Assembly: GCF_002022685.1 (NCBI RefSeq) | Contig: NZ_CP019789.1 | Coordinates: 1,559,001-1,623,000 of the forward strand | DNA: 64,000 nucleotides | Origin: Bartonella schoenbuchensis R1 | Lineage (GTDB): Bacteria > Pseudomonadota > Alphaproteobacteria > Rhizobiales > Rhizobiaceae | Reading direction: 5' to 3' | Shown: piece after piece, positions 1 through 58,819 of the stretch | Layout of the letters: each line of letters begins with the position of its first letter | Numbering within the stretch: the first letter of the stretch is position 1 | The notes under the pieces: model-generated | What the model was told of the DNA's origin: nothing | What the model saw: only the letters and a program-made list of their open reading frames with translations | The model's database searches: none | Made by a program: the position numbers and the translations under genes

Positions 1-363
1 GAATAGGCCCTTTTCCATCAATGGGGTTACCCAATGCATCCACAACACGCCCGAGCAAAGCCGGCCCCACAGGAACATCAATAATAGACCCAAGCCGTTT
101 AACACAATCACCCTCACGAATATCGCGATCTGATCCAAAAATCACCACCCCGACATTATCCATTTCCAAATTAAGTGCCATACCACGCACACCATTTGAA
201 AAGGAAACCATTTCACCCGCTTGGACATTATCCAAACCACAAACGCGAGCGATACCATTACCTACAGACAAAACCCACCCAATTTCTGAAACTTCAGCTT
301 TTGGTCAAAGTTCTTGATTTGCTCTTTTAGGATTTTTGAAATTTCAGACGGTCTAATATCCAT
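1..363 (-). CDS. atpA: ATP synthase F1 subunit alpha, N-terminal part (cut by left edge; probable sequencing frameshift)
   Basis: The first 120 or so residues of the F1 alpha subunit, the regulatory nucleotide-binding partner of beta in the membrane-bound ATP synthase. It begins MDIRPSEISKILKEQI, the usual alpha-subunit start in Rhizobiales. After codon 22 the frame is lost. Reading resumes one base over (AEVSEIGWVLSVGNGIARV) and stays open to the window edge, through the beta-barrel domain (GDCVKRLGSIIDVPVGPALL). The break is a four-base T run at 299-302 on the plus strand, where five bases restore the frame. The ATG shares one base with the atpH stop (TGATG), typical of translational coupling. 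The catalytic core lies outside the window. Since the gene is essential, I read the frameshift as a base-calling error. Confidence 0.93.
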
Positions 364-947
364 CAGCTGACCTCTTTTTTCAATGCAAGCTTAAGCGAAG
401 ACAATTTCCCCTCAAGAGAGGCATCAATCTGACATGACCCCAAGCGGACAATAAGCCCACCCAAAATCGTCGAATCGACAGACAAGCGTAGCGAAATTTT
501 TCTCCCAACAACACCTTCCAAAGCCACGCGCAACTCCTCTTGTTGATGAACATCCAACGGATGTGCAGAAATAATATGTGCCGATGCTTCCCCACGAAAT
601 GAAGCAACACAACACTGAAAAGCACGTAAAATATCAGACAAAGCAAAAAGTCGACGATTTTCTACAATAACACGCAAAAAATTGCGCATAATTTGACCCG
701 CCCCTTTGTCAGAAAACCTAAAACTCTCACAAATAGAATCAAGCGTTTGAACCTGTTCTTTTGTTGAAAAAAATGGGCTTTGTATTAAGCGCTTTAAATC
801 TGTATTGTGATCCAAAATATCCAAAAAAGATGTAAATGCCTTTTCGAAATCTTTTACATAGCCTGCTTCTTGAACCAAATCAAAAAGCGCTTGCGCATAA
901 CGTCGGCTCGCTAATGGCAACGGCATACGAGAAAATGAATCCGACAC
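363..947 (-). CDS. atpH: ATP synthase F1 subunit delta
   Basis: Delta (OSCP-type) subunit, which links the F1 head to the peripheral b-subunit stalk. The 194-residue product carries SRRYAQALFDLVQEAG near the N-terminus and the C-terminal motif DSTILGGLIVRLGSCQIDAS, typical of the family (compare GGxxxxxGdxxxDxS). I chose the GTG at 945-947 because a GAGGCGAGG ribosome-binding site lies just upstream; the frame is open to an ATG at 992, but that start would add an atypical basic leader. It is the first gene of the atpHA... unit visible here. Its promoter should lie between 948 and 1132, but I could not identify -35/-10 boxes with confidence. Confidence 0.95.
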   Translation of the reverse strand: MSDSFSRMPLPLASRRYAQALFDLVQEAGYVKDFEKAFTSFLDILDHNTDLKRLIQSPFFSTKEQVQTLDSICESFRFSDKGAGQIMRNFLRVIVENRRLFALSDILRAFQCCVASFRGEASAHIISAHPLDVHQQEELRVALEGVVGRKISLRLSVDSTILGGLIVRLGSCQIDASLEGKLSSLKLALKKEVS

Positions 948-1132
948 GAAACCTCGCCTCTTTCCTTTTAGCGATTCTTTAATCTTGATCAAACAAAATG
1001 GATCAAATATCTCAAATTTTAAGAATCTTCTTCTTGAAATTCAGAATGAACAAATTTCTTCACTCCTAGCATAGACACAACCGACTCGCAACACCACAAA
1101 GCAATGCTTTTTGAAAATTTTAAATGAAATAT

Positions 1133-55815: not shown

Positions 55816-57002
55816 TTACATTTTTATAGCCTTAGAAGATCCTTGTTGCACAAAAATCAGTAATTGCTGAAAAACACGTTGAACAGTTAAATGCCGTTTT
55901 AACTGCTGCATAAAATCTACCGAAATATCCTGAGCACTTTGGGGTAATGTTTGCCACTCTGCTAAAGCCTTTTCGTAATCTCCAACTTGAATGGCCATTT
56001 CCATCCGCGCTACAATCGCACCTACCGTCACACCTTCCACATTTCCAACTGGCCGTAAAACAAATAAACTTTTTATCCAGGCCCAAATGTGTGCAAAAAA
56101 ACCAGCATCTGGTGCAACAATATTTTGTTGCCCAACAATCGTATCTGCAATACTAGAAAAATCAGCCGCAAGCTTAGCAGTGCTTGGAAGACCTGCATTT
56201 GCCGTTTCTTGCAAAAGATCAAGCCCAGAAACTGAAGGTGAAAAACGCTGTATTATTTCCAATTCATTGGCATAAGGTTCACCCCGATCGACTGCATTTT
56301 TAAAGCATTAATCGCCATTAAAAATTCAGGGTCTATTCCCCCTTTTGCATCACTCTTAGCAGCAATTTCTTCTCGTAGAGTGTCTATTTGTTGCTTTAAT
56401 GCAGCAAAATCATTTGTATTGCCCTGCCCAGCTAATAAAGCTTCATGAATAGCGTGTGAGATTGCAACTAAATTTTGTATATTCTCTTCAAGAGCATTAA
56501 CCTTTTTCTCTAAAGCCGCAAAAATTTCCTTACTTTCTTCTTGTGATGCCTCACCCCTTTGAAGAGACTTTTCACCTTGTGATGAAAAAATAGAAAAAGC
56601 CGTCTTTAATGCATCAAGTTCTTGGATAATATGATGCAATTGCCGCGTTGTTTCTTCAGCTTGGCTTTTTGCAATTTCAGCAATCTGTAAAGCTTGCTCT
56701 CCCCTAATATGCTCGCTTCTCAAAAAAGGAGAAAGAAAACCCGCCCATTGCATTCCTATCCAAAAACTTAAGGTGATAAAACTGCCAACAACTATTAAAA
56801 TCAATGAATGAAACCAAGCAATACCAGGTGCCTTCCTTTCTTTTGCTTTTTGTTTGCTTTGTGTTTCTTTTGTCATTGATTCTGCTGAGTTTTGTGTTTC
56901 TTGCTCTAAATCACAATCTATCACATCACACTCAATTACAGGTGTTTTACGGTTAGTACCGGTATAATGTGGTTTTGCTCTGGGTTTTGAAAATTTTGCC
57001 AT
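55816..57002 (-). CDS. Mitofilin-like inner-membrane coiled-coil protein (probable sequencing frameshift)
   Basis: COG4223 protein, the alphaproteobacterial relative of mitochondrial Mic60, implicated in membrane architecture and envelope contact. It has a charged cytoplasmic N-tail, a single membrane segment (HSLILIVVGSFITLSFWIGM), a long periplasmic coiled coil (about residues 105-230) and a C-terminal helical domain (PSTAKLAADFSSIADTIVGQ; YEKALAEWQTLPQSAQDI). The frame breaks at a five-base T run (56297-56301); one extra base gives ALKNAVDRGEPYANELEIIQ and 395 residues. I chose ATG 57002 (GGGAGAAAAGAG upstream) over ATG 57026. It is coupled to hemY. Confidence 0.88.
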
Positions 57003-57725
57003 AAATGTCTCTTTTCTCCCGCTCATTTTTATTATAAAATAACAAAATGAAAGAAACTTTAAAAAAGCTAAGCATTGATTGAATATCTCGCTTTTTAAGT
57101 ATTTTTACTCAATTTTTCTTAACTCACAAGCCAGATATTTCAATTAAACTAAATATTTTAATAGCCTATCTTTCCGCAAGTACACTTAATATTTTAGAGA
57201 AAAAGTCTTGGAAGTACATCAAAACTGATGTTTAAAAAAAATCCTTAAAAATTGTTGATTATAAACAGTAAATGCAACAACTCCAATGTGCAGTCACTTA
57301 TTGTTAAAGCAGTCACTCATTATCAAAAAATTAAAAAACACATCAATTTTGGGATAAACAACATCAAGTGTGCTAAAAACCTAATTGTAAAAAACTTTCT
57401 AAGGTTTAACGCTGCCAACCTCTCACACTTACATCATATAGCTTGTACATCATATGGTTTGACTACAAAAATTCCAAGAACTGGTTAGCGAACATGACTT
57501 ACCACATTTTAAAATGCATCCTATACTAAACATTCTATTTTTGTTGAATTTTCAAATGGAGCAATCCATCACTGACGACACCCCATAGACCATATCCAGA
57601 TGCATTGTCTCTCATATACCTTATATTTCTCTCATACACCTTATATTTTAACAGAACTCTTTGCATCCCTCTTGATCCGTGATACCCACTACATGAAAAA
57701 TCTTTCAACATAAGGTTATCCTGCA
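57003..57725. other. Gene-poor region where hemC/hemD commonly lie in relatives
   Basis: 723 bp between the mitofilin-like gene and tsaD. In many Rhizobiales hemC and hemD occupy this place, reading with mitofilin-hemY and divergent from tsaD. I find no frame resembling either. The small frames here (57252-57488 plus; 57535-57750 minus) have no recognisable domain. The region must contain the promoters of tsaD and the mitofilin-hemY unit. A 20-bp tandem repeat lies at 57608-57647. Confidence 0.5.
57608..57647. repeat. 20-bp tandem duplication upstream of tsaD
   Basis: TCTCTCATATACCTTATATT and TCTCTCATACACCTTATATT stand head to tail with one mismatch, about 80 bp before tsaD. It could affect the tsaD promoter or be neutral. 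Confidence 0.7.
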
Positions 57726-58819
57726 ATGCGTCTATTGGGAATAGAAACAAGCTGTGATGAAACTGCTGCTGCTATTATTGAGCACAACAGTAATGGAAAA
57801 AGTCGTATTCTTTCCAATATCGTTTGGAGCCAAATTGAACATCACGCACCTTATGGTGGCGTTGTTCCCGAAATTGCTGCGCGTGCTCATGTTGAAATTC
57901 TTGATAGCTTGATTCTTAAAGCGCTTACACAAGCTAATATAAAGTTGAAAGATATTGATGCTATTGCAGCCACAAGTGGCCCTGGTCTGATTGGGGGCTT
58001 TTAGTGGGACTTATGAGTGCAAAAGCATTAGCTCTTGCTACCGGAAAACCTTTTATTGCTGTCAATCATCTAGAAGGGCACGCTTTAACAGCACTCATGA
58101 CTCATGATATAAATTTTCCCTATTTATTGCTCCTAGTCTCAGGCGGTCATACACAAACCATTCTTGTCCACGGGATAGGAAATTACCAACGCTTAGGAAC
58201 AACCATTGATGATGCCTTGGGAGAAGCCTTTGATAAAACTGCAAATCTTTTAGGTCTTCCTTACCCTGGTGGTCCAGCTCTTGAAAAAGCCGCGCTATTA
58301 GGAGATAAAAATCGCATCTCTCTCCCACGACCTTTAAAAGGTGAAAAACGGTTAGATTTTTCTTTTTCCGGTCTAAAAACTGCTGTTCGCAAAGCCGCAA
58401 CAACAATGGCTCCTTTAACACAGCGCGATATTGCTGACATCGCTGCAAGTTTTCAAGCAGCAGTCATTGATACATTGCAAGATCGTGTTAGTTTAGCTTT
58501 GCAATATTTTACCCACCACTATCCTCTTTCTCATCAGAAAGAATGCCGCCCCCCTGCCTTGGTTGTTGCAGGTGGAGTATCAGCCAATCAAGCCATTCGT
58601 TTAAGCTTGCAAGAGCTGGCTTGCCAACATGGTTTTGAATTTATTGCTCCCCCCCCTTCTTTGTGCACAGACAATGCTGCAATGATTGCTTTTGCCGGTG
58701 CAAAACGCATAGAACAGGGGCAAACAAGCCCTCTTGATATTGCCCCTCGCTCACGCTGGCCGTTGGATGAAAAAGCACCCCCCTTAATCGGTACAGGACG
58801 GAGAGGAGCAAAAGTTTGA
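57726..58819 (+). CDS. tsaD: tRNA t6A threonylcarbamoyltransferase TsaD (probable sequencing frameshift)
   Basis: Transfers threonylcarbamoyl to A37 of ANN-decoding tRNAs with TsaB/TsaE. It begins MRLLGIETSCDETAAAIIEH; iron ligands lie in HHAPYGGVVPEIAARAHVEI, where HxxxxxH-type His residues sit, and VNHLEGHAL. ATP-site segments are LLVSGGHTQTILV, GEAFDKTANLLGLPYPGGP and ALVVAGGVSANQAIR. The frame breaks at ATSGPGLIGG, either in the five-base G run (57993-57997) or the following four-base T run. One extra base gives GGLLVGLMSAKAL (or GGFLVGL) and 364 residues. TsaD is essential in most bacteria, so a base-calling error is the best explanation. Confidence 0.95.

What the first reader, a model, noticed from the sequence alone, without database searches (positions are those of the whole stretch)
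299..58002. Fifteen single-base losses in mononucleotide runs break 14 mostly essential genes
The sites are 299-302 (atpA), 2860-2865 (priA), 5126-5131 (lptE), 15369-15373 (efflux channel), 16738-16742 and 16561-16565 (xthA), 19944-19956 (ftsK), 20921-20926 (ubiH), 25360-25364 (sdhD), 28716-28720 (rimM), 40218-40223 (heparinase-like), 45674-45677 (ffh), 54730-54733 (hemY), 56297-56301 (mitofilin-like) and 57993-58002 (tsaD). Every one is a loss in a run of 4-7 bases, 11 of them G/C. Adding one base each gives a whole-codon, full-length family member. Because atpA, ffh, ftsK, tsaD and priA cannot all be dead, homopolymer under-calling in the assembly is the likely cause. Counting these as pseudogenes would badly overstate genome decay.
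Basis: partly seen in the sequence, partly recalled or inferred. Interest (0 to 1): 0.7.

Follow-up and report, generated by a model that had tools for sequence, protein, structure and literature searches.

The report
Assembly miscounts base runs in Bartonella
A Bartonella genome assembly appears to have dropped single bases from runs of identical letters, above all G or C runs, so that many healthy housekeeping genes look broken when they almost certainly are not.

Summary
In detail: 14 genes show 15 frame switches. For 13 genes, intact relatives match two frames in order (12 with all three relatives, rimM with one); sdhD is softer, with only its start out of frame. The 13 switches scored automatically are all one-base losses. 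Fourteen sites lie in runs of 4-6 bases, 11 of them G/C; ftsK is unresolved.

(1) Losses occur across this chromosome (mutS, metG, parE, ilvD, thiC, rsmH and others), while the nearest relative shows almost none in the same stretches. (2) In window coding sequence, loss climbs with inferred G/C run length (2/37, 5/18, 4/7 at 5, 6, 7; 0/2 at 8) but is 3/458 for A/T runs of 5-8, as published for nanopore reads. (3) One of two 23S rRNA copies, otherwise identical over 2094 aligned bases, lacks a base in a G run; other assemblies show similar gaps between copies, mostly in T runs. (4) ffh and tsaD are unsplit in 15 of 15 other Bartonella genomes searched, atpA in 14 of 15.

"Mostly essential" is overstated: about half are. 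No reads were available, so platform and proof stay open. An ordinary artefact, of low interest.

The parts
299..302 (-). frame switch in atpA (gene runs off the window's left edge)
   Evidence: G022, G015 and G016 AtpA each match two frames overlapping at 277-301; residues 17-510 in one frame in the own genome
2860..2865 (-). frame switch in priA
   Evidence: two-frame match, residues 1-405 and 401-733 of G022 PriA; NCBIfam PriA model (NF004071) positions 13-402 and 401-735 on the two ORFs
5126..5131 (-). frame switch in lptE-like gene
   Evidence: two-frame match; G022 orthologue hits Pfam LptE
15369..15373 (-). frame switch in outer-membrane efflux channel gene (OEP family); described only
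   Evidence: two-frame match; G022 orthologue hits Pfam OEP
16561..16565 (-). second frame switch in xthA-like gene
   Evidence: three-piece match in three frames; Exo_endo_phos
16738..16742 (-). first frame switch in xthA-like gene
   Evidence: three-piece match in three frames
19936..19966 (-). frame switch in ftsK, not resolvable to one run
   Evidence: frames overlap across 19936-19966; nucleotide alignment to G022 shows a shorter T run at 19959-19962 plus neighbouring gaps
20921..20926 (+). frame switch in ubiH-like FAD monooxygenase gene
   Evidence: two-frame match 1-45 / 45-414; FAD_binding_3
25360..25364 (-). start-region frame switch in sdhD: body intact, native start codon out of frame
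   Evidence: tblastn residues 6-132 in one frame; T run one shorter than in G022; Sdh_cyt
28716..28720 (-). frame switch in rimM
   Evidence: two-frame match 1-25 / 25-173 with G022 only; not flagged with G015 or G016; RimM domains
40218..40223 (-). frame switch in heparinase II/III-like gene
   Evidence: two-frame match 1-381 / 369-574; Hepar_II_III_C
45674..45677 (-). frame switch in ffh
   Evidence: TIGR00959 positions 1-346 and 345-427 on the two ORFs; two-frame match; unsplit in 15 of 15 same-genus genomes
54730..54733 (-). frame switch in hemY-like gene
   Evidence: two-frame match 1-362 / 347-514; HemY_N
56297..56301 (-). frame switch in mitofilin-like (COG4223) gene
   Evidence: two-frame match 1-243 / 243-403; the 8 homologues found are 395-397 aa
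57993..57997 (+). frame switch in tsaD
   Evidence: two-frame match 1-91 / 91-364; unsplit in 15 of 15 same-genus genomes

Best explanation
These are consensus errors of the assembly, not mutations. The organism is a Bartonella close to B. schoenbuchensis and B. melophagi, and its genes are intact in the cell. In the assembly, runs of identical bases, above all G/C runs of 5-7, were called one base short at many places in the chromosome, so that 26 sites in the sampled genes (15 in the window, 11 elsewhere; about 172 kb of comparable coding sequence) appear frameshifted. Shown here: the frame switches, their almost loss-only direction, their near absence from the nearest relative in the same stretches, their dependence on run length and on G/C in the window, and a one-base loss in one of two otherwise identical 23S rRNA copies. 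Inferred: that raw reads would show full-length runs, and that the source is a long-read, nanopore-like data set without enough polishing.
For: Two-frame matches. 13 of 13 automatically scored window switches are losses. Elsewhere in G000, 13 switches in 111 placed ORFs, 12 scored losses and 1 gain; one loss lies upstream of the likely metG start and is dropped, leaving 11 in ilvD, mutS (3), thiC (2), metG, parE, rsmH, an unnamed 699-aa gene and ileS (the last by recall from its N-terminus). Reverse test: 12 of 13 switches scored in G022 mirror those of G000. With G015 or G016 as reference, G022 has 0 switches in 48 and 47 genes, the window 12 in 48 and 13 in 49, all losses. G/C loss 2/37, 5/18, 4/7, 0/2 at inferred lengths 5-8; A/T 1/301, 2/111, 0/32, 0/14; Fisher odds ratio 31, p=1e-8 (ftsK left out). 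Published nanopore data: C and G homopolymers are called worse than A and T, increasingly with length, and lengths are underestimated (PMC8486125, passages). 23S copies of G000: 2094 aligned, 0 mismatches, 1 gap in a G run. 18 of 20 pieces of at least 100 codons have dN/dS at or below 0.41. ffh and tsaD unsplit in 15 of 15 other same-genus genomes, atpA in 14 of 15 with no full match in the other.
Against: No reads or second assembly of this species were available. Both C8 coding runs in the window are intact (0/2 lost), and the two flanking 20-kb stretches have no switch in 32 placed ORFs, so errors are uneven (Monte Carlo p=0.076). The rRNA test is not unique to G000: G022's own two copies differ by 8 gaps (9 bases), 7 of them in T runs and two inside its 23S match, and G016's copies by one T-run gap, in each case without a mismatch. 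One tuf copy of G022 is split too, so the reference has flaws outside the compared genes; the tuf copies of G000 show no gap. The ffh tail of G016, a genome not, is shifted twice against G015. Two nanopore assembly studies found A/T-dominated residual errors (PMC12007338; PMC11232133 after the best polishing), so the platform is not certain. dN/dS cannot exclude very recent breaks, and 2 of 7 shorter pieces exceed 0.5.
Confidence: 0.95

Rival explanations
1. Real mutator lineage: MutS is lost (its gene carries three switches here), so runs slipped throughout the genome and the broken genes are true pseudogenes or are rescued at low level.
For: mutS is split three times; G/C runs slip more than A/T runs in repair-deficient cells (recalled); losses rise with G/C run length from 5 to 7.
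Against: atpA, ffh, tsaD, ftsK, metG and parE cannot all be dead in a living cell (general knowledge). 26 losses against one ambiguous case, whereas slippage also adds bases. Neither of 2 C8 runs nor any of 46 A/T runs of 7-8 in window coding sequence is broken, the unresolved ftsK site apart. A 23S copy is hit too. In an experimental evolution study of another Bartonella, the 85 other A/T and 13 other G/C runs of 9 or more showed no mutation besides those in one adhesin gene (PMC11466379, passages).
Confidence: 0.02
2. Ordinary pseudogenes from genome decay in a host-restricted bacterium.
For: A frame next to ffh looks decayed (dN/dS about 0.6, 64% identity to G022), so decay does occur here.
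Against: The split genes keep coding constraint on both sides; the sites are one-base run losses; the set includes essential genes and an rRNA copy.
Confidence: 0.015
3. Programmed frameshifting or transcriptional slippage that restores full-length protein from genuinely short runs.
For: The scored window sites all go in the same direction; a 7-base T run, which could be slippery on the coding strand, lies beside the ftsK switch.
Against: ffh and tsaD are unsplit in 15 of 15 and atpA in 14 of 15 other same-genus genomes, so the arrangement is not conserved; the 14 resolved runs are only 4-6 long, below a seven-base slippery heptamer (recalled), and mostly G/C; G022 has the same 7-base T run with an unbroken ftsK; it cannot explain the 23S loss.
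Confidence: 0.01
4. Contingency (phase-variable) simple-sequence repeats, as described in Bartonella.
For: SSR-based ON/OFF genes exist in the genus (PMC11466379, passages).
Against: Those are runs of 9 or more in an adhesin gene and other candidate loci; here runs of 4-6, mostly in housekeeping genes.
Confidence: 0.005

Closest known systems
Gene-fragmenting homopolymer errors in long-read bacterial assemblies (Kastor paper, PMC12007338; passages seen)
   Same: False deletions in runs, most often after four to five identical bases, splitting genes.
   Different: There A/T runs dominated in a 59% GC genome; here G/C runs dominate in a 40% GC window.
Nanopore homopolymer under-calling (PMC8486125; passages seen)
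   Same: C/G runs worse than A/T, worsening with length; lengths underestimated.
   Different: That is read-level error; here it is seen in a finished consensus, and the platform of this assembly is unknown.
Bartonella SSR contingency loci (PMC11466379; passages seen)
   Same: One-base changes in mononucleotide runs that shift frames in the same genus.
   Different: Runs of 9 or more in an adhesin gene and other candidate loci, not runs of 4-6 in mostly housekeeping genes and rRNA.

Membership tests
Homopolymer under-calling artefact | one-base losses concentrated in mononucleotide runs | tested here: met
   14 of 15 window sites tied to runs of 4-6; 13 of 13 scored are losses
Homopolymer under-calling artefact | rate rises with run length | tested here: met
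   G/C 2/37, 5/18, 4/7 at lengths 5-7; 0/2 at length 8 goes against but is tiny
Homopolymer under-calling artefact | hits genes regardless of function, and non-coding RNA | tested here: met
   housekeeping genes and one 23S copy
Homopolymer under-calling artefact | specific to one assembly, absent from relatives | tested here: met
   G022 0 switches in 48 and 47 genes. Not absolute: G022 has run gaps between its rRNA copies and a split tuf copy
Homopolymer under-calling artefact | raw reads show the longer run | not testable with these tools
   no reads held
Genuine pseudogenes | relaxed constraint after inactivation | tested here: not met
   18 of 20 pieces of at least 100 codons have dN/dS at or below 0.41; mitofilin-like 0.54 and 0.48. 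Very recent breaks are not excluded
Mismatch-repair mutator | gains as well as losses, longest runs hit most | tested here: not met
   26 losses against 1 ambiguous case; 0 of 48 window coding runs of 8 (G/C) or 7-8 (A/T) lost, ftsK left out
Bartonella SSR contingency locus | run of 9 or more | tested here: not met
   the 14 resolved window runs are 4-6
Programmed frameshifting | conserved split in relatives | tested here: not met
   ffh, tsaD and atpA only were tested across the genus: unsplit in 15, 15 and 14 of 15

The most novel reading that the evidence does not exclude
A viable Bartonella with a genuinely split mutS whose G/C runs really have slipped in essential genes, kept alive by slippage during transcription or translation that restores enough full-length protein, including one slipped 23S copy tolerated because the other is intact.
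Probability: 0.015. Interest if true: 0.9.

Novelty: not a real feature. Interest (0 to 1): 0.12.

Why it matters
As a caution: this assembly is held here as the one genome of its species. About 15 apparent breaks per 100 kb of comparable coding sequence (26 in 172 kb), or roughly 150 over the 1.67-Mb chromosome if the density of the 284 kb examined holds, would be booked as pseudogenes. Work on genome reduction, mutS status or essential-gene loss in Bartonella should not use its frame calls. A per-run loss rate split by base and length, and a comparison of duplicated genes within one assembly, are read-free checks that can be applied to other assemblies.

Tried and rejected
Length depletion of runs: the window is not depleted in long runs compared with G022; uninformative, and replaced by the per-run loss rate. 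Clustering: window plus ten samples differ with Monte Carlo p=0.076, and positions inside the window fit a uniform spread (KS p=0.42); that test counted 27 losses, one of which (before the likely metG start; the MetG model begins at residue 47) I dropped later. Naming the strain through its 55.8-kb second contig: a repC-bearing locus matched two Bartonella plasmid records over 9% of its length at 79%. Two repC loci of that contig are 94% identical paralogues, not usable as an error test. tuf copies of G000: 2 mismatches, no gap in 1196 bases, so no error seen there. 16S rRNA: no match in any of six genomes; the fetched operons hold long runs of N. A short-motif check of the 23S site in the fetched rRNA loci found the motif only in G000 and G022 loci, so that comparison rests on those two genomes. 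One switch in thiO-like was scored as a gain but could be a two-base loss. One sample (L128, 20 kb) placed no ORF and counts for nothing. In the forward comparison, 8 in-frame stops were also flagged (2 in the window); all lie near the ends of matches, and I read them as out-of-frame tails or wrong starts and ends, not nonsense mutations. The double match near 45132-45145 was judged an over-long ORF overlapping the ffh end. The count of window switches with G015 and G016 was printed as numbers only; the sites themselves are seen.
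Full report
Where the window comes from. The window is G000:C1:1559001-1623000; G000 has 1,728,387 bases in two contigs and a listed completeness of 99.98%. For the mitofilin-like fragment, the nearest proteins are labelled B. schoenbuchensis (94%) and B. melophagi (93%), the furthest of the eight B. bovis (77-78%). The species name itself is not established. The nearest genome held, G022, is collinear with nearly the whole window at 89-92% nucleotide identity; its 76% identity on the same gene part suggests B. 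bovis, an inference.

Noticed in passing
44864-45145 (-): A frame that I read, by recall, as a chorismate-mutase remnant (no Pfam hit at E 1e-5) lies between ffh and rpsP; it is 64% identical to G022 with dN/dS about 0.6, looser than its neighbours, and may be a genuine decaying gene.
   Followed up: partly
G022:C1:945892-947062 (L160, L161): One of the two tuf copies of the relative G022 is itself split in two frames, differing from the other copy by gaps at three places, two of them in T runs; its two rRNA copies also differ by gaps, mostly in T runs.
   Followed up: partly
G000:C2 (55,761 bases; L117, L118): The second contig carries three repC-family genes, two of them on 94% identical paralogous stretches; only distant Bartonella plasmid records matched.
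   Followed up: partly
G016:C1, ffh tail (about 1290806-1290964): The ffh tail of G016 appears shifted twice relative to G015, both scored as losses.
   Followed up: no
window, whole: The window has more G/C (0.400) than the matching G022 stretch (0.392) and the fetched stretches of G015 and G016 (0.372, 0.363), and several of the shortened C runs are interrupted by another base in G022.
   Followed up: no
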